Below are positions 11,956 through 31,518 of a DNA stretch of 64,000 nt, piece after piece. The position numbers and the translations under genes are program-made. This DNA is from an uncultured Anaeromyxobacter sp. GTDB taxonomy: Bacteria > Myxococcota > Myxococcia > Myxococcales > Anaeromyxobacteraceae. The stretch spans positions 1 to 64,000 of the forward strand of contig CAIVAR010000093.1 in NCBI GenBank assembly GCA_903904005.1. Reading direction: 5' to 3'. Each line of letters begins with the position of its first letter. The first letter of the stretch is position 1. Under the pieces are notes generated by a model. That model worked only from the letters and a program-made list of their open reading frames with translations, made no database searches and was not told the DNA's origin.

Positions 11956-12687
11956 ATGTCGAAACACGCCCCCGAGCTGACCCGCAAGGACATGAAGGCC
12001 CCCGACGCCTTCCAGACCGCCGCCAAGGCCGCGACCTGGCTCACGGGGAAGCAGCAGACCATCGTCGCCATCGTGGTGGGCGCCCTGGTCGTGGTCGCCG
12101 TCATCCTCGGGGCCATGGCCTGGATGGACGCCCGGAAGAGCACCGCCGGGGCGCTCCTCTACCGCACCCTGGACGACGCCGACGGTCAGGTCTCGAGCGT
12201 CCCGCTGCCCGGCGTCAGCGTCCCGATCTTCCCGTCCACCGAGGCGCAGTACCGATCCGTGCTCGGCCGGGCCGACGAGCTCCGCAAGACCTACCCGTCC
12301 ACCGACGCGGCCCGTACGGCCGCGCTCGCCGCCGCCGCTGCCAACCTCCGGCTCGCCGCCTGGGATGCCGCCATCGCCGACTACGAGGCCTACCTGGCGG
12401 GAAGCGCACCGCAGGACTCGCTGGCCTTCATCGCCGTCGAGGGGATCGCCCGGGCCAAGGAGGCCAAGGGTGACGTTCCCGGCGCCATCGCCTCGCTCGA
12501 GAAGCTCCAGAACACGGCTCCGGCCCGCGCCGACCGGGCGGTGCTCGAGCGCGCCCGGCTGCTCGCCGGCTCGGGGAAGGCCGACGAGGCCCGGAAGCTC
12601 CTCCAGGCGTTCCCGCAGGACTTCAAGGACTCGCAGCTTCGCGGCGACGCCGACAAGCAGCTCGCCGCGCTGGGCGGGACCAAGTAG
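11956..12687 (+). CDS. YfgM-like single-span membrane protein with TPR-like domain
   Basis: A 243-residue protein with a basic cytoplasmic N-terminus (about 35 residues), one membrane span near residues 37-58 (VAIVVGALVVVAVILGAMAW) and an Ala-rich helical domain outside, arranged like tetratricopeptide hairpins. This is the layout of YfgM, a SecYEG-associated periplasmic chaperone partner in E. coli. The gene order der - this gene - BamB-like matches yfgM-bamB-der synteny, which supports the call more than sequence does. The stop is immediately followed by the next GTG. Confidence 0.75.
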   Translation: MSKHAPELTRKDMKAPDAFQTAAKAATWLTGKQQTIVAIVVGALVVVAVILGAMAWMDARKSTAGALLYRTLDDADGQVSSVPLPGVSVPIFPSTEAQYRSVLGRADELRKTYPSTDAARTAALAAAAANLRLAAWDAAIADYEAYLAGSAPQDSLAFIAVEGIARAKEAKGDVPGAIASLEKLQNTAPARADRAVLERARLLAGSGKADEARKLLQAFPQDFKDSQLRGDADKQLAALGGTK

Positions 12688-24808: not shown

Positions 24809-25890
24809 CCGCGGGGCCGGACCCGAACCTCGCCCTCGCCGCCCTCGCCACCGTCCACGTCGACCTCGACGGGCAGGAAGGCCCGGACGATCCCGGCGTT
24901 GGTGAGGAGGTGGCGGGTCACTTCACCTACGGTGAACCGTGTCGAGCAGTCCACCCCGGGAGGCCGGGGGACGAGACCCGCGGCGACGAGGGCGGCGGGG
25001 AGGAGCAACTGGTCGGCGAGGTGGGGGTCGACCGCGCCCCGACCGTCGAGGAAGCGGGAGAAGGCGGCGACCGCCGCGTCGGCCGTGCGGTCGGGTTCCC
25101 GCCCACCCTCGTTGGTGGCCGAGTGGCCCGAACGGACCCGCTCGAACCGGGCCACGACGAGGAGGTGGGCTCCCCGGGACGGCCCGCCGGGCATCGGGAC
25201 CACCCGGGCCTCGCAGGAGACCCCGTTCGCCCGCATCCGGCGTTCGGCTCGCGAGGCCTGCTGCTCCCCCACCGCGAAGTGGACGCCGGAGAAGAGGGAC
25301 ACCACCTCGGTCTCGAGGAGCGTTCCCCGGTGGACGAGGTCGAGCGGGGGCATCGCCCGGGCGGGCTGGACGGTCGCCTGGAAGGCGCCACCCCCTTCCG
25401 GGTAGAAACCGGCCCGCTGGAGGGAGAGTCCGAACGGGAACCCGAGCCGGGCCACCGCCGGCGCCCAGACGAGGGCCAGGTAGTGGAAGGAGGGGCTGTG
25501 GTCCTGGTGGGTGCCGCCGAGGAGGGAGAGTTCGGTCGGGAAACCGGCGAGCGCGAGCGGCCAGCAGAGGGTCTGGAAGAGCAGCGGCGCCGATCCGGCC
25601 GTGCCGATGTCGAAGGTCCAGGAGCCCTGCCGCACAACATCCCGTGGTTCCAGGGAGATCTCCCCTGACCCCACCTCGTCCCCGACCAGGGTCCCGGCGC
25701 AGATGGCGGCCGTCGCCCGGGCGGCGGCGAGGTGCTGGGGGCGAAGCCCCGGCTTCAGGCGGCCGTGGCGTACCCGGGAGAGCCGGAAGGGCCGGCCGGT
25801 GATGGCGGAAAGGCTGAGGGCGCTCCGGAGGATCTGACCTCCACCTTCGCCGATGGCGCCGTCGATCTCGATCCGGCCTCGGGAGTCCAC
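24805..25890 (-). CDS. rtcA: RNA 3'-terminal phosphate cyclase
   Basis: A 361-residue cyclase that uses ATP to turn RNA 3'-phosphates into 2',3'-cyclic ends. The hallmark GEGGGQILRSALSLS lies near residues 15-29, PQHLAAA and GSAPLLFQTL follow, and the adenylated histidine should be the one in TRHLLTNAGIVRAF. The chosen start is GTG 25890. The window holds no RtcB ligase and no RtcR-type sigma-54 activator beside it, which usually flank rtcA. Confidence 0.9.
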   Translation of the reverse strand: MDSRGRIEIDGAIGEGGGQILRSALSLSAITGRPFRLSRVRHGRLKPGLRPQHLAAARATAAICAGTLVGDEVGSGEISLEPRDVVRQGSWTFDIGTAGSAPLLFQTLCWPLALAGFPTELSLLGGTHQDHSPSFHYLALVWAPAVARLGFPFGLSLQRAGFYPEGGGAFQATVQPARAMPPLDLVHRGTLLETEVVSLFSGVHFAVGEQQASRAERRMRANGVSCEARVVPMPGGPSRGAHLLVVARFERVRSGHSATNEGGREPDRTADAAVAAFSRFLDGRGAVDPHLADQLLLPAALVAAGLVPRPPGVDCSTRFTVGEVTRHLLTNAGIVRAFLPVEVDVDGGEGGEGEVRVRPRG

Positions 25891-26033
25891 GCCCGGCCAT
25901 CTAGAACCCGGCCGGGCTCCCTCGTCAAGCCATCGCGGTTTCGCCGAAATAGCCGCTTTCCCCGGCCGTAGGGGGTTGCATGGTTGCAGCCCACGCATTG
26001 CCCGGGATAGGTTCCCGCGTCTCCTGGCCCGCG
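25891..26033. promoter_or_regulatory. Divergent promoter region between rtcA and the ECF sigma gene
   Basis: These 143 bases serve both directions. A perfect 10-bp palindrome CCCGGCCGGG lies at 25907-25916. I cannot place -35/-10 elements with confidence. The sigma gene start at 26034 has only a weak ribosome site. Confidence 0.35.
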
Positions 26034-26639
26034 ATGAAGCAGGGGGAACGGGTCCTCTTGGCGCCTCCATCCCACGACGCCAGCCTCGCCCTCTCGGCGG
26101 CTCGCGGCGACCGCCGGGCCTTCGCCCGGCTGGTCGACGAGAACAAGCGCTCGGTATACGGCCTCTGCCTCCGGCTCCTCTCCGATCCGGAGGAGGCGAA
26201 GGACGCAGCCCAGGAGGCCTTCACCCGCGCCTACGCGTCGCTCGAGAGCTACGACCTCGAGCAGGCCTTCGCCCCCTGGGTGCTCCGCATCGCCCGGAAC
26301 CACTGCCTCGACCTGCTCCGCCGCCGCCTGCCGGCCCGGGCCCGGGTGGAGCTCGACGCCGAGGAGGAGGACGGGCGGCACCACGAACTCGCCGACACCA
26401 CCTCCGAGCCGGCCGACGAAGCCATCCAGAAGGCCCAGACCCGGGTGGCCCTCGAGCGGGCCGTGGCGGCCCTGCCGCCCAACTACCGCGAGGTCGTGCA
26501 CCTCTTCCACGTCGAACAGCTCTCCTACAAGGAGATCGCCGCCACCATGGGCATTCCCCTCGGAACGGTGATGACGTGGCTCCACCGGGCCCGCGCCCAG
26601 CTTCGCACGCTGCTCGAAGGACAGGAGGTGTCGCCGTGA
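26034..26639 (+). CDS. ECF-type RNA polymerase sigma factor
   Basis: About 201 residues with two sigma regions. Region 2 includes FARLVDENKRSVYGLCLRLL and DAAQEAFTRAYASL, with promoter-recognition helix FAPWVLRIARNHCLDLLRRR. Region 4 includes LPPNYREVVHLFHVEQLSYKEIAATMG and GTVMTWLHRARAQLR. The start at ATG 26034 removes an atypical leader that an upstream in-frame ATG would add. The stop overlaps the GTG of a zinc-finger anti-sigma gene, the usual pairing for a membrane-signalled ECF factor. Confidence 0.92.
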   Translation: MKQGERVLLAPPSHDASLALSAARGDRRAFARLVDENKRSVYGLCLRLLSDPEEAKDAAQEAFTRAYASLESYDLEQAFAPWVLRIARNHCLDLLRRRLPARARVELDAEEEDGRHHELADTTSEPADEAIQKAQTRVALERAVAALPPNYREVVHLFHVEQLSYKEIAATMGIPLGTVMTWLHRARAQLRTLLEGQEVSP

Positions 26640-27154
26640 CCGACGTCCGCCACATCGCAGAGGACGAGGCCCAGCTCTACCTCGAGGGCGCCATCGAGCC
26701 TTCCGAGGCGGAGCGGATCGACGGTCACCTCGCCGGATGCACGGCGTGCCAGGCGCTCGTGGCGTCGTTCGAGTCCCTCTCCGAGGCGCTCTCGGGGCTC
26801 CCCCTCGCCGACCCCCCGCCCGACTTCACCTCCGCCGTCATGGCCCGCATCGACGAGCGGGAACTCGCCCGCGCGAGCGAGCGGCTCATCGCGTTCGGCG
26901 TGCTCGCCACCGTCTGCGTCTCCCTGGTGGTCGCGCTCTCCCTGGCCGGTCAGGCGGCATGGGCCCCGGCCCTCTCCGCGGTCTCCTCCGCCGGCGTGAG
27001 GGCGCTGCAGGCCTTTCGCATCACCTCCGACGTCCTCTCCCCGGTCGTCTCGGCGCTCCGCGTCGAGATCATCGTGGTCGCGGCGGTCGTCGGCATCCCG
27101 CTCACCATCGCCCTCTCCCGCCTGGCGACCCCCCGCCAGGGCCAGGTCGCCTGA
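26636..27154 (+). CDS. Anti-sigma factor with zinc-finger domain and membrane spans
   Basis: A 172-residue partner of the ECF factor. The N-terminal anti-sigma domain contains HLAGCTAC, fitting HxxxCxxC, within LEGAIEPSEAERIDGHLAG. A membrane span lies near residues 81-103 (LIAFGVLATVCVSLVVALSL) and a second near 145-163 (IIVVAAVVGIPLTIALSRL). It probably holds the sigma factor at the membrane until an envelope signal arrives. It is coupled to the sigma gene by GTGA and followed after 14 bases by the next gene. Confidence 0.9.
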   Translation: MTDVRHIAEDEAQLYLEGAIEPSEAERIDGHLAGCTACQALVASFESLSEALSGLPLADPPPDFTSAVMARIDERELARASERLIAFGVLATVCVSLVVALSLAGQAAWAPALSAVSSAGVRALQAFRITSDVLSPVVSALRVEIIVVAAVVGIPLTIALSRLATPRQGQVA

Positions 27155-27168
27155 CCCGGAGCCATCCC

Positions 27169-28863
27169 ATGTTCACCGCACTCCTCGTCGCCGCCGCCCT
27201 CGCCGCTCCACCGGCCCCCCCGGCCCTTCCCCCGCTGCCGCCCCTGCCCGGCGCCGTGGCCCGATCCGGCCGGGACTCCCGCCTCCTCGGCGAATGGCCG
27301 TCGAAGCCCAACGACGCCAAGGTCACCCTGAGCGACGGCAAGATGACCGTCGACAAGGCGCTCCGGAAGATCGCCAGCGCCGCCGGCTGGAGCATGGTCG
27401 CGAACACCGGCCGGGCCGGCGACCGGATGCTCGTCCTCGACCTGCGCAACGTCCCGGTGGAGGACGCGCTCGTCGCCGTCCTCGAGGGGACCACCCTCGC
27501 GGCCACGCGCCGGGGGGAGACCATCACCGTTGCCCCGCGCTCCAGTCCCGTCAGCGAGACCCCCGTTCTGTCCGGGTTCGAGGCGCCTTCGGGGAAGAAG
27601 GTCAGCGCCAACTTCGCCGATACCCCCGTGGACAAGGCGCTGCGCCAGATCGCGGAGGCCGCCGGATGGTCCATCGTCCTGCCGCCGGGCCTGCGAGGCG
27701 CGGTGAACGCCAACTTCCGCGCCACCCCCGCCGAGGAGGCGCTGAAGGCTGTCCTCTCCCAGGCCGGCCTCACCGCGGTCCGCGACGGCTCCATCGTCAC
27801 CATCGCCCGCGAGTCGGGCCCCCGCGTGGTCATCCGAGGCGAGAAGCGCCGGCTCGTGTTCGACGGCGACGGCGAGGTGGTGCAGGAGGATGTCCGCGGG
27901 ATCGCCGACGAGGCCCGGCAGGCGGCCGCCGAGGCCCTCGCCGACGCCCAGCAGGGGCTCCAGGACGGGCTCGTCGAGTCCGGCAGCAAGGGCAAGGACA
28001 AGGTCATCTCCGGCGACGTCGTCATCGGCCCGGGCGAGCGCTGGCGGGACGTGGTCGCGATCCGCGGCAACGTGCGGATGGAGGCCGGTTCCTCGGCCCG
28101 CCAGGTCACTGCGGTGCTCGGCAGCATCGAGATCGGCCCGGGCGCGACCGTCGAGAAGGAGGTCGTCGCCGTCGGCGGCAACGTTCACGTGGCCGCCGGC
28201 GCACACGTCGGGAACGACGCGGTCAGCGTGGGTGGCGAGGTCTCCATCGACCCGGGCGGCACCGTCGACGGCCAGGAGGTCTCGGTGAGCGTGCCGGGCG
28301 TGGGGAGCCTCCTCGGCCTCGCCTCCCCCGGCCCCGCCACGTCGAAGGGAATCTCCATCGGCCTCCAGATCGGCCAGGCGATCGCCAAGTTCATCGTCTT
28401 CTTCCTGCTCGCCCTGCTCCTGCGTGCCGTCGCCCCGGCCCGGCTCGAGCGGGTCACGGCAGGCCTCACCCGGGCACCGCTCCGCGACGTGCTGGTCGGC
28501 CTGCTCGGGACCATCGCCATGCCGGTGCTGACGGTCCTCCTGGCGGTGACCATCGTCGGGATCCTGCTCATCCCGGTCCAGTTCGTCGCCATCATCCTCG
28601 CCGCCATCCTCGGCTACACGGCGCTGGCGCTCCTCGTCGGGCGGGCCATCCCCATCGGTGAGCGCGGGGCCAGCGGCGTCATCCAGCTCGCCATCGGGAC
28701 CGCGATCGTGGTTCTCGTCAGCGAGATTCCCTTCGTGGGAATCCTCGCCATGATCTCCGCCTGGCTTCTCGTCTTCGGCGCGGTGCTCCGCTCCCGCGGC
28801 GGCCAGCCCTCGCCAGCGGCCCCGGCGCCCACGACCTCCATCGCCCCCACCGCCGGCGGATGA
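27169..28863 (+). CDS. Exported STN / bactofilin-like repeat protein with C-terminal membrane domain
   Basis: A 564-residue protein in four parts. Residues 1-30 are a signal followed by a Pro-rich stretch. Two STN-like modules follow (about 50-123 and 144-213), each with a DKALRxIAxAAGWS helix and a VPVEDALxxVLEGT-like helix, as in secretins and TonB receptors. Residues 278-373 form a hexad-like right-handed beta-helix resembling bactofilins (GDVVIGPGERW, GSIEIGPGATV, GGNVHVAAGAHV, GGEVSIDPGGTV). From about 403 to 540 there are four or five membrane helices. The combination is unfamiliar to me. It is the likely output gene of the adjacent ECF pair. Confidence 0.75.
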   Translation: MFTALLVAAALAAPPAPPALPPLPPLPGAVARSGRDSRLLGEWPSKPNDAKVTLSDGKMTVDKALRKIASAAGWSMVANTGRAGDRMLVLDLRNVPVEDALVAVLEGTTLAATRRGETITVAPRSSPVSETPVLSGFEAPSGKKVSANFADTPVDKALRQIAEAAGWSIVLPPGLRGAVNANFRATPAEEALKAVLSQAGLTAVRDGSIVTIARESGPRVVIRGEKRRLVFDGDGEVVQEDVRGIADEARQAAAEALADAQQGLQDGLVESGSKGKDKVISGDVVIGPGERWRDVVAIRGNVRMEAGSSARQVTAVLGSIEIGPGATVEKEVVAVGGNVHVAAGAHVGNDAVSVGGEVSIDPGGTVDGQEVSVSVPGVGSLLGLASPGPATSKGISIGLQIGQAIAKFIVFFLLALLLRAVAPARLERVTAGLTRAPLRDVLVGLLGTIAMPVLTVLLAVTIVGILLIPVQFVAIILAAILGYTALALLVGRAIPIGERGASGVIQLAIGTAIVVLVSEIPFVGILAMISAWLLVFGAVLRSRGGQPSPAAPAPTTSIAPTAGG

Positions 28864-28932
28864 CCCCCTTCCAGGGGGGGGGCTCCCTACTGGGGTCTTG
28901 AGTAACCGTTCCTTTGGGTGAAGGCTGCGGGG

Positions 28933-29526
28933 ATGACCACATCCAGACTGGCCGTCCTCGCCGCCGCATCCACCCTCCTCGCCTGCGCCACCCCCTCCGG
29001 CACCCCGATCCCGGTGACCACCCCCGCCCCCGGAGAGGTGAAGACGAAGGACTTCAAGTCCACCGGCGAGGTCTTCTTCGACGCCCAGTCCGCGGGCACG
29101 AGCGTGGCCTTCAACGACTTCCGGATGGTGGGACCCCAGGTGAACATGGGGCTCGACGCCAAGGGCAACTGGGGCGGCAACATCGGCGAGAAGAACATGA
29201 TCGTCACCGTGAAGCCCGGTCGAATCACTGGCGACGGCGTCGACCTCTACGTGGTTCGCAAGGGCACCACCGTGAGCATCCAGGGGATGTACTTCCAGCG
29301 CCAGGTCTGGTTCACCCTGAAGCCGAACGAGATCCAGGGCACCACCGACGGCGGAAGCTGCTCCTTCGATCTCACGCCGGCCCGCACGCCCGGCTTCTAC
29401 ACCGGCGGCGTCGGCTGCGGCGGGAACATCCGGATGGGCACCCTGCAGCTCACCGGGATCGCCGCCAACATCGAGCAGCCGCCCATGCCGCAGCTCGTGT
29501 TCGCGCTCATCGCCGTCCTTCCCTGA
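28933..29526 (+). CDS. Lipoprotein of unknown function
   Basis: A 197-residue lipoprotein. The start at ATG 28933 gives a clean signal and lipobox (MTTSRLAVLAAASTLLAC), preferable to the in-frame GTG 15 bases upstream. The mature part has a Pro/Thr linker, then a beta-rich domain (GKNMIVTVKPGRITGDGVD-like strands), a cysteine pair (GGSCSF, GVGCGGN), and a hydrophobic C-terminus (MPQLVFALIAVLP). It follows the STN/bactofilin-like gene by 69 bases, in which a short GC hairpin lies, so it may be read from the same transcript or from its own. Confidence 0.7.
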   Translation: MTTSRLAVLAAASTLLACATPSGTPIPVTTPAPGEVKTKDFKSTGEVFFDAQSAGTSVAFNDFRMVGPQVNMGLDAKGNWGGNIGEKNMIVTVKPGRITGDGVDLYVVRKGTTVSIQGMYFQRQVWFTLKPNEIQGTTDGGSCSFDLTPARTPGFYTGGVGCGGNIRMGTLQLTGIAANIEQPPMPQLVFALIAVLP

Positions 29527-29538
29527 CGGGGGGCGGCG

Positions 29539-31518
29539 TCAGGGCTTGCGGACCGGCCGGGCCGGGAGGCGCGCCAGCGCTTCCCGGGCGGAGCGTCGTA
29601 CCTCGGCGTAGTAGTCGGAGCGCAGGGCCTCGAGGCGCAGCGAGGCCGGCTCGTGGCGGAGCTTTCCGAGCGCCCGGGCCGCGGCGGCGCGCACCGCCGG
29701 CCGGTCGCTGAGCAGCTCCGCCGAGAGCGCTTCCCCCGCCTCCGGCGACCCGAGCTGGGCGAGCGCCTCCACCACCTCCAGCCGGCCGACCGTTCCGCCG
29801 CCCGCGAGCGCATCGAGCAGGACCCGGGTGCCGTCAACGCTGCCGAGGCGACCGATGGCGAGGGCCGCGTCGGCGGCCAGCGGCCCGCCCAGGAGAGGCG
29901 AGAGGAGCGGAAGGGCGGACGGGTCGCCGGTTGCACCGAGCGCCCGGACGATGGCTTCCCTCTCGACGGGGTCGCCCGGGCTGCGGGAGAGGGCTGCGCC
30001 GAGGGGGGCGACCGCAGGGGCTCCGTGGGGGCCCAGCCCCACGTAGGCGAGACGTCGGACGTCGGGGTCCGGGTCGGCGGAGAGGGTCACGAGCGGCGGG
30101 AGGGCCGAAGGTTCTCGACCCAGGGACAGGGCCCGTGCGGCGGCAGCCCGCAGACGCGCGTCCGGCGCCGCGACCAGGCGTGCCACGAGCGGTCCGGAGG
30201 ACTCGGGGGCCAGCCGGGCCAGGGCGACCGCCAGCTCGGCGAGCTCCTCGACGTCCCCTGCTTCGGCGATCCCGGGTGGCTCGCCCGGCCGGGCGCTCCG
30301 GGCCGCCCTCTCCTGGATCGCGGCCACGCGCCGCTGAAGCGCGGGAACGGCGGGGGGGAACGGCGCCGCCCCCAGCGCCCGGGCAGCCGCAGCGCGGACC
30401 CGCGGATCGGCGCTCGACCCCAGGATCCCGGTCGCCTTCTCCCCCACCCCCTTGGAGCGCTCGGCGGGGAGCCCCAGGGCGCCGAAGGCCGCGAGCGGGG
30501 CGATCGACTCCGGTCCGCCGCGCCCGATCCGCTGGACGAGCGGCCGCTCCGGGCAGTCGCCACCCCGCGCATGGGCAGCACCTGCCGCCGCCTCGGTGAC
30601 GGCCGGATCGGTGGCCCGGAGCGCCACCTCGCACAGCGAGACCCCGACTCCGGGTGCGGGCGGGAGCGTGTCGAGCGCGGCAACGGCGCTGCGCGCCACC
30701 CGGGCGGGCCCGGTGGAGCCCACCTCCCCCAGGCCATCCGCCGCGAGGGGATCTCCGAGGTTCCCGAGGGCCCAGGCGGCCGCCTCGGCCAGCCCGGCCC
30801 ACCGGCTGCGGAGCGCCGCCTCGAGCGGCTCGAGCGCGGTCCGGTCGCCCGACCCGCCGAGCCCCCTTGCGGCCGCCTCCGCCAGCTTCGGATCGCCATC
30901 GGCGTCCTCCATCAACGGGACGAGGAACTTCACCGCCTCCACCCGTCCGCTCCGCCCGAGTTCCTCCGCGGCGCCGGCCCGCACGGTTGGCGAACCGGTC
31001 CGGAGCTCCCGCACGTTCTGCTCCCAGAGCTGCCGGGCCTCGGCCTCGAGCGCATCCCGCAGCGAGGTCCCGGTGGCCCGCATCGCCTGCGCGATCTCGA
31101 CCCGGGCACGCGAGTCGGCCCTTCCGTAGGCCTGGGCGAGGGCGCGCCCGGCGCGTTCGGAGACCTCCGCGGCGCCGCGGGCGTCGGACGGGGCCCGGTC
31201 CGGGCGGAGGGTGGCGAGCGAACGGGCCGCCGAGGACATGACCTCGGGATCGGGATCGGCGAGCATCTCCGAGAGCGCCTCGAGCGAGCGGGTTCCCCCT
31301 CGCCTGCCCAGCGCCCGCGCCGCCGCGGCCCGAACCCGGGGATGGGGGTCCTGCCCGGCGACGAGGAGGGCCGCGAGCTCCTTCGCCTCCCGTGGATCGG
31401 TGAGCCGTTCGACCGCAGCGGCCCTGCGGGCCGGATCGGCCGAGGAGAGATCGCGCTGGCCGCCGGGGCTGCACGCCGCGAGCGCCGTCGCGAGGAGCGC
31501 GGCGGCCGCCCGTCTCAC
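29539..31518 (-). CDS. HEAT-repeat lipoprotein
   Basis: A 659-residue alpha-solenoid. A signal ends in a lipobox (ALLATALAAC, near residue 16). The rest is built of about fifteen HEAT/PBS-type repeats, seen as VRAAAARALG, VMSSAARSLATL, LAEAAAWALGNLGDP, LRAAAARALSLG and VRRSAREALARL. Such proteins are adaptors with no enzymatic motif. The GTG start overlaps the rluB stop, so it is the last gene of the trpS-scpA-scpB-rluB run. A soluble periplasmic scaffold translated with chromosome-segregation genes is unexpected. Confidence 0.85.
   Translation of the reverse strand: MRRAAAALLATALAACSPGGQRDLSSADPARRAAAVERLTDPREAKELAALLVAGQDPHPRVRAAAARALGRRGGTRSLEALSEMLADPDPEVMSSAARSLATLRPDRAPSDARGAAEVSERAGRALAQAYGRADSRARVEIAQAMRATGTSLRDALEAEARQLWEQNVRELRTGSPTVRAGAAEELGRSGRVEAVKFLVPLMEDADGDPKLAEAAARGLGGSGDRTALEPLEAALRSRWAGLAEAAAWALGNLGDPLAADGLGEVGSTGPARVARSAVAALDTLPPAPGVGVSLCEVALRATDPAVTEAAAGAAHARGGDCPERPLVQRIGRGGPESIAPLAAFGALGLPAERSKGVGEKATGILGSSADPRVRAAAARALGAAPFPPAVPALQRRVAAIQERAARSARPGEPPGIAEAGDVEELAELAVALARLAPESSGPLVARLVAAPDARLRAAAARALSLGREPSALPPLVTLSADPDPDVRRLAYVGLGPHGAPAVAPLGAALSRSPGDPVEREAIVRALGATGDPSALPLLSPLLGGPLAADAALAIGRLGSVDGTRVLLDALAGGGTVGRLEVVEALAQLGSPEAGEALSAELLSDRPAVRAAAARALGKLRHEPASLRLEALRSDYYAEVRRSAREALARLPARPVRKP

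What the first reader, a model, noticed from the sequence alone, without database searches (positions are those of the whole stretch)
26034..29526. ECF/anti-sigma cassette driving a novel STN + bactofilin-like + membrane protein
A coupled ECF sigma and zinc-finger anti-sigma pair is followed within 15 bases by an exported protein joining two STN modules (secretin/TonB sensor type), a bactofilin-like beta-helix and four or five membrane helices, then by a lipoprotein. I know of no described family with that order. It could be a surface sensor or polymer-anchoring complex with its own sigma factor.
Basis: partly seen in the sequence, partly recalled or inferred. Interest (0 to 1): 0.55.

Follow-up and report, generated by a model that had tools for sequence, protein, structure and literature searches.

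The report
Self-regulated envelope-stress operon with bactofilin-fold protein
A bacterial stress-response operon pairs a sigma factor and its membrane inhibitor with an uncharacterised membrane protein whose exported part looks like a bacterial cytoskeleton protein; the same trio recurs in several distant groups of bacteria, and it appears to switch on itself and a small set of envelope-protecting genes.

Summary
Sigma (ATG probably 25980, not 26034), a zf-HC2 anti-sigma and an exported protein (27169-28863) follow each other closely. The third protein has two STN/N0 domains, a bactofilin-fold beta-helix and a five-helix membrane domain without a Pfam family. The lipoprotein is not part of the module: it is linked only in three congeners. 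The trio is deeply conserved: 55 of 57 scorable loci with a strong beta-helix+membrane hit have an ECF sigma gene within 2 kb upstream, in several phyla. The STN domains are a variable (0-3 copies), mainly Myxococcota add-on. Upstream of sigma lies a sigmaW-like promoter, GAAATA-N15-CGTA, found in loose form at 39 of 45 loci (0.04 expected). In 24 family genomes it occurs 84 times (reversed control 0), in front of recurring classes: the operon itself, Zn-ribbon-PspC, exported bactofilin-like proteins, DUF2807, Yip1. Three genomes without the sigma orthologue have no site. I read it as an autoregulated, sigmaW/Psp-like envelope-stress system. The third protein is its likely sensor or regulator, because the anti-sigma has only a ~40-residue loop outside. 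That step is inferred; a purely protective role remains open.

The parts
25945..25970 (+). sigmaW-like promoter CGAAATA-N15-CGTA of the operon
   Evidence: Loose motif upstream of sigma in 39 of 45 loci, 0.04 expected in shuffles; YGAAATA-N15-CGTA 84 sites in 24 family genomes, reversed control 0
25980..26639 (+).
   Evidence: Sigma70_r2/r4, SigW best NCBIfam resemblance; ATG 8-9 nt after CGTA in 13 of 13 family sigma sites examined
26636..27154 (+). zf-HC2 anti-sigma factor, two membrane helices with ~40-residue loop, no periplasmic sensor domain
   Evidence: zf-HC2 2.2e-6; HxxxCxxC motif and two-helix pattern across loci
27169..28863 (+). STN-STN-beta-helix-membrane protein, 564 aa, signal-peptide-like N terminus
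   Evidence: Pfam STN 2.7e-21; AlphaFold2 pLDDT 80; conserved family
27283..27537 (+). first STN/N0 domain (residues 39-123)
   Evidence: model; Pfam STN, several stretches
27598..27810 (+). second STN/N0 domain (residues 144-214), nearest PilQ N0
   Evidence: TIGR02515 4.1e-16; 4ar0 profile 3.5e-12, Foldseek 4.8e-4
27997..28287 (+). bactofilin-fold right-handed beta-helix (residues 277-373)
   Evidence: VIA-align 6rib Z 13.1; PF04519 in 9 of 30 homologues
28357..28797 (+). helical membrane domain (residues 397-543; five long helices plus a short one), no Pfam/NCBIfam family

Best explanation
This is an autoregulated envelope-stress module that works like Bacillus sigmaW with a Psp-type output. 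At rest the zinc-finger anti-sigma, held in the inner membrane by two helices, sequesters the SigW-like sigma factor. Envelope or membrane damage is perceived outside the cytoplasm, most likely through the third protein, whose STN domains and bactofilin-fold beta-helix face the periplasm and whose membrane domain sits beside the anti-sigma. Released sigma transcribes GAAATA-N15-CGTA promoters: its own operon (more of all three proteins) and a small regulon of membrane-protecting genes (Zn-ribbon-PspC, exported bactofilin-like and DUF2807 beta-structured proteins, Yip1 membrane proteins, DUF5916 proteins). Shown by sequence: gene order, domains, predicted fold, promoter, regulon membership, co-absence of sigma and its sites. 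Inferred: export topology, sequestration, and above all the sensor/regulator role of the third protein.
For: Gene trio: 55 of 57 scorable strong-hit loci (recognised duplicates removed; 11 more too short to tell) have an ECF sigma within 2 kb upstream on the same strand, in Myxococcota, Rokubacteria, Verrucomicrobia, Acidobacteria, Paenibacillus and a gammaproteobacterial MAG; weaker paralogues only 6 of 22. Synteny in the family. Promoter: 39 of 45 loci. Regulon: 84 sites vs 0 in control; 63 of 78 sites examined precede one of 11 recurring gene classes, named by Pfam on representatives. Genus of G079, with its own variant: 173 sites vs 8 control (my sum over). Sigma-promoter pairing: G021 (100% complete), G010 and G023 lack the orthologue and have 0 sites. 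sigmaW consensus TGAAAC-N16/17-CGTA read in PMC2375139; sigmaW control of the PspC/toastrack yvl operon read in PMC12791056. Anti-sigma lacks an external sensor domain across loci. STN fold matches cell-surface-signalling domains of FecA and PupR.
Against: No experiment and no expression data. The stress identity rests on the gene content of the predicted regulon. Homologues in haloarchaea and weak paralogues stand without sigma, so the beta-helix+membrane unit can work outside ECF signalling, which favours an effector role. STN domains are absent in some linked members (L050; no STN hit in L130, L132). In other phyla the promoter was not found, so autoregulation is shown only for Myxococcota, Rokubacteria and one further MAG. 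15 of 78 sites have no recognised class. The A4 model was seeded with many of the loci whose scores are quoted.
Confidence: 0.55

Rival explanations
1. Same sigmaW-like envelope-stress module, but the third protein is only an effector: an inner-membrane-anchored periplasmic beta-helix scaffold, made on demand, that stabilises the membrane or envelope; the anti-sigma senses damage through its own membrane helices.
For: The regulon contains a stand-alone exported copy of the same beta-helix (8 family sites) and DUF2807 proteins; archaeal and paralogous copies lack sigma; Psp-type systems stabilise the membrane (PMC11237479, abstract in the listing).
Against: Near-obligate linkage to sigma/anti-sigma in distant phyla, also where the sigma is only distantly similar, is more than an ordinary target would need; the anti-sigma has no external domain.
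Confidence: 0.33
2. A bactofilin-type morphogenesis or polymer-anchoring complex that happens to have its own sigma factor.
For: Best fold match is bactofilin; Pfam Bactofilin in 9 of 30 homologues.
Against: N-terminal signal-like segments put the beta-helix outside the cytoplasm, unlike classical bactofilins; the co-regulated genes are PspC, DUF2807 and Yip1, not wall-synthesis genes.
Confidence: 0.08
3. A FecA/FecR-like cell-surface-signalling system in which STN domains relay an outer-membrane receptor's state to the anti-sigma.
For: STN domains; Foldseek matches to FecA, FpvA and PupB signalling domains and the PupR domain.
Against: The anti-sigma has no STN/FecR domain; sequence resemblance is to PilQ N0; no TonB receptor class in the regulon; STN absent from many linked homologues.
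Confidence: 0.04

Closest known systems
Bacillus subtilis SigW-RsiW and its yvlABCD target
   Same: SigW-like sigma, zf-HC2 anti-sigma (RsiW recalled), promoter TGAAA(T/C)-N16-CGTA (consensus read), PspC plus toastrack-type targets (yvl operon)
   Different: To my recollection sigW-rsiW has no third gene; the third protein with STN and bactofilin-fold beta-helix, and an exported bactofilin-like target, are new here
PSP envelope-stress partners: PspC and Toastrack (DUF2154/DUF4097/DUF2807), Ravi et al. 2024, PMC11237479
   Same: PspC and DUF2807 are predicted regulon members; a beta-helix domain joined to a membrane domain
   Different: Beta-helix is bactofilin-fold and exported; control is by an ECF/anti-sigma pair; 'bactofilin' and 'ECF' do not occur in the main text of that paper
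Bactofilins (PF04519)
   Same: Right-handed beta-helix with best structural match 6rib
   Different: Carries signal-like N terminus, STN domains and a polytopic membrane domain; Pfam does not recognise the window member
PilQ/secretin N0 and TonB-receptor STN domains
   Same: Two STN domains, nearest PilQ N0
   Different: No secretin ring or TonB barrel; anchored by inner-membrane-type helices
Haloarchaeal halofilins (Curd et al. 2024, recalled; only citing papers seen, as a listing)
   Same: Surface-exposed bactofilin relatives (recalled); haloarchaeal homologues of the beta-helix+membrane unit exist (L095, L114)
   Different: Not compared by sequence here; archaea have no ECF module (general knowledge)

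Membership tests
ECF sigma / zf-HC2 anti-sigma pair | Sigma70 regions 2 and 4 only, followed by anti-sigma with Zn-binding HxxxCxxC and membrane helix | tested here: met
SigW-type ECF with autoregulatory promoter | TGAAA-N16-CGTA-like promoter upstream of its own gene | tested here: met
   consensus from PMC2375139
SigW (NCBIfam equivalog) | Score above the curated cut-off of the SigW model | tested here: not met
   144.6 bits against cut-off 209: SigW-like, not SigW
Bactofilin (PF04519) | Sequence match to Pfam Bactofilin in the window protein | tested here: not met
   no hit in the window protein; 9 of 30 homologues hit
Bactofilin (PF04519) | Bactofilin right-handed beta-helix fold | tested here: met
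   predicted model, Z 13.1 to 6rib, 1.8 A over 91 residues
Bactofilin (PF04519) | Nucleotide-independent polymerisation | not testable with these tools
   needs purified protein
Secretin | C-terminal secretin ring domain after N0 | tested here: not met
   only the N0/STN part matches; C terminus is beta-helix plus membrane helices
FecIR-type cell-surface signalling | Anti-sigma with periplasmic STN/FecR domain | tested here: not met
PSP response | PspC and/or toastrack components under a common stress regulator | tested here: met
   10 Zn-ribbon-PspC and 8 DUF2807 sites in the predicted regulon; PspA not looked for
Halofilin | Sequence homology to HalA/HalB | not tested
   sequences not at hand

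The most novel reading that the evidence does not exclude
A three-component ECF signalling class spanning several phyla, in which the stress sensor is not the anti-sigma but a periplasmic bactofilin-fold membrane protein; in Myxococcota it has gained PilQ-like N0 domains that let it detect mis-assembled secretins in the inner membrane, the classical trigger of the Psp response.
Probability: 0.15. Interest if true: 0.85.

Novelty: new variant of a known kind. Interest (0 to 1): 0.62.

Why it matters
It gives a concrete promoter and a short regulon for an uncharacterised ECF group in myxobacteria, links bactofilin-fold beta-helices to extracytoplasmic stress signalling, and defines a membrane family without a Pfam name that travels with ECF/anti-sigma pairs in several phyla. 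If the third protein is the sensor, it would explain how a two-helix anti-sigma without an external domain receives its signal.

Tried and rejected
Lipoprotein 28933-29526 as part of the system: rejected, linked only in G000, G002, G003 and with scattered paralogues. Search of viral contigs found no relative. Broad alignment A1 could not seed a contig scan; the closer A2 was used. sigma-70-type promoters: none in 25800-29700; one terminator-like site, 0.9 expected. SigW-like motif upstream of the sigma genes of other phyla: not found except Rokubacteria and one deltaproteobacterial MAG; isolated near-matches to other variants in L098, L103, L109. Foldseek gave no match with E <= 0.001 for the beta-helix+membrane model, and VIA-align did not reach the membrane domain; its fold stays unassigned, neither known nor new. 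Whether the Myxococcus orthologue is RpoE1 could not be settled (Ward 1998 not read). No paper describing this trio was found in searches; the reclassification paper of the ECF family was not held, so prior description there is not excluded. Hypothesis that the regulon includes PilQ or a type II secretin: no such class seen among the 78 sites.
Full report
What is there. On the + strand between a divergent rtcA gene and a HEAT-repeat gene (these neighbours named by me from their translations) lie an ECF sigma gene, a zf-HC2 anti-sigma gene and a 564-residue protein gene. Sigma and anti-sigma overlap; 14 bases separate the anti-sigma stop from the third ATG. The sigma resembles SigW best among NCBIfam models, below that model's cut-off. 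The third protein has a signal-like N terminus, two STN domains (Pfam 2.7e-21), a coil, a beta-helix and a helical membrane domain in the AlphaFold2 model (mean pLDDT 80.2, 28 sequences). A second model of the beta-helix and membrane part reached 88.2. The beta-helix matches bactofilins best (6rib Z 13.1, 6ria 11.1, 2n3d 10.8); by Foldseek alone these matches were weak. Pfam does not recognise the window's beta-helix, but hits 9 of 30 aligned homologues. The membrane domain has no Pfam or NCBIfam family.

Conservation. Of 41 genomes searched, 35 match the third protein; many matches of the more distant genomes cover only the C-terminal half or an STN domain. In the family the trio keeps its place between rtcA/corA/mrp and HEAT/rluB/scpB/scpA in most loci with enough flank. 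Across 116 Myxococcota genomes 78 have a beta-helix(+membrane) match; part of these matches are beta-helix-only or weak paralogues. A contig scan with organism names gave 56 loci in Myxococcota, Rokubacteria, Opitutaceae and Pedosphaera, Acidobacteria, Gemmatimonadota, Paenibacillus, Rubrobacter, Zixibacteria, haloarchaea and others. I scored distance to an ECF sigma on the same strand. Among strong hits (150 bits or more), after removal of duplicates that I recognised (14 loci), 55 of 57 scorable loci have sigma within 2 kb upstream; 11 more had too little upstream DNA. The two exceptions are L051 and a haloarchaeon. Among weak hits 6 of 22 scorable are linked; one more was too short. The weak Myxococcota paralogues serve as an internal control. 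The scores come from a model seeded with many of these loci, so the strong/weak split is partly by construction; the linkage is not. STN was found by Pfam in 20 of 23 aligned order members, and copies range from none (L050, L051) to three (L042) by my reading of the alignment. So the beta-helix plus membrane domain is the conserved core, and STN a lineage-specific addition.

Lipoprotein. P0003 is next to the trio only in G000, G002 and G003; elsewhere its relatives are scattered paralogues (matches in 14 of 41 genomes). I leave it out of the module.

Anti-sigma. By a simple hydropathy scan the gene between sigma and the third gene mostly shows a two-helix pattern (some loci three or four overlapping calls, a few odd ones such as L098, L101, L103, and none found in L092), with a loop mostly of 24-58 residues and a short C-terminal tail. 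In the window the loop is about 40 residues. No external sensor domain is recognised.

Promoter. Upstream of sigma a bipartite site stands out by eye. The loose form G[AC]AAT[ACG]-N15/16-CGTA, which I chose after seeing the sequences, occurs in 39 of 45 distinct loci against 0.04 expected in mononucleotide shuffles; the strict form GAAATA-N15-CGTA in 22 of 45 against 0.0. The six without are a Myxococcales MAG (L074) and five from other phyla. It differs little from the sigmaW consensus TGAAAC-N16/17-CGTA (passage read in PMC2375139). In the window it lies at 25945-25970, and an in-frame ATG (25980) follows after 9 nt; in 13 of 13 family sigma sites examined the distance is 8 or 9 nt. I therefore think the mRNA is leaderless and sigma begins at 25980. 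This is inference.

Regulon. In G000 the one-mismatch pattern occurs 11 times, reversed control 1. In 24 genomes of the family YGAAATA-N15-CGTA occurs 84 times in 20 genomes, reversed control 0. I examined the downstream DNA of 78 of 84; the other six lie upstream of sigma operons by position. Of the 78, 63 precede one of 11 recurring classes: sigma operon 13, PspC 10, exported bactofilin-like 8, DUF2807 8, Yip1 5 plus Zn-ribbon Yip1 4, DUF5916 5, a 73-residue membrane peptide 4, a 63-residue peptide 3, S9 peptidase 2, S41 peptidase 1; 15 are unassigned. Classes were seeded by me from the list itself and named with Pfam on representatives (PspC 5.9e-21, DUF2807 1.2e-47, Yip1 1.6e-11 and 2.3e-14, DUF5916 1.2e-19). 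The genus of G079, where the site reads GMAATGG-N14-CGTA, has sites in 27 of 27 genomes, 173 in all against 8 in the control (my sum over the rows). I looked at 17 of these: they include a Zn-ribbon-PspC, an exported bactofilin-like gene, two bPH_2 proteins and a transglycosylase-associated protein; several others have no clear target. Near the exported bactofilin gene of G079 and G129 the site is a variant, GCAATC-N15-CGTA.

Pairing of sigma and site. G021 (100% complete), G010 (80%) and G023 (66%) have no close sigma homologue (best 3.4e-29 against 4e-79 to 4e-68 in three genomes that keep the operon) and no site with GAAATA-N15-CGTA; the five others in the pattern search, which have the operon, have sites. 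Absence in the two incomplete genomes is weak evidence.

Mechanism. The site and target set point to a sigmaW/Psp-like envelope-stress response: sigmaW controls a PspC/toastrack operon in B. subtilis (passage in PMC12791056), and toastrack (including DUF2807) is a Psp partner (passages in PMC11237479; there bactofilin and ECF have no occurrence in the main text). The third protein is either the sensor/regulator or a first-line effector. For the sensor: near-obligate linkage to sigma/anti-sigma even with distant sigmas, an anti-sigma without an outside domain, and STN domains of the type used in sigma signalling (PupR, FecA). For the effector: homologues without sigma in archaea and paralogues, and a stand-alone exported copy of the beta-helix in the regulon. 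I favour the sensor/regulator, without excluding both.

Bold reading. The second STN is nearest to PilQ N0. Mislocalised secretins are a known trigger of Psp (abstract of PMC5596341 in the listing). An inner-membrane protein with PilQ-like N0 domains could detect such secretins. Nothing here tests this, and linked homologues without STN speak against it as the general function.

Limits. All is sequence and prediction. Some loci of named and unnamed sources are the same genome; I removed those I recognised. Literature absence rests on the ten searches named in Tried and rejected, in an open-licence library only.

Noticed in passing
L138 (G000:C170, site 12259-12284 -): Exported stand-alone bactofilin-like protein (164 aa, no Pfam hit) behind the same promoter; recurs at 8 family sites and in a Myxococcus-type genome (L224).
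   Followed up: partly
L117 (G000:C116:85162-85869 -): A second, weaker type of beta-helix+membrane protein in the same genome, not next to a sigma gene; similar orphans in other Myxococcota (L118-L127, L136).
   Followed up: partly
L128: A short weak-type homologue (287-aa frame) that does sit behind an ECF sigma and a two-helix anti-sigma, unlike the other weak Myxococcota paralogues.
   Followed up: no
L189, L195, L170, L204; L144, L200, L182: Two families of very small membrane/exported peptides (73 and 63 aa, no Pfam hit) 12-28 nt behind the promoter.
   Followed up: no
G021: A complete family member that lacks the sigma orthologue, the full third protein and every promoter site: apparent loss of the whole system.
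   Followed up: partly
window 28933-29526: Putative lipoprotein of a family with 7 matches in G000; in 41 relatives searched its matches fall only in this bacterial family (14 genomes); function unknown.
   Followed up: no
L042: Homologue with three STN domains and probably a PEGA domain (Pfam 3.2e-8 in one A1 member; the assignment to L042 is by eye).
   Followed up: no
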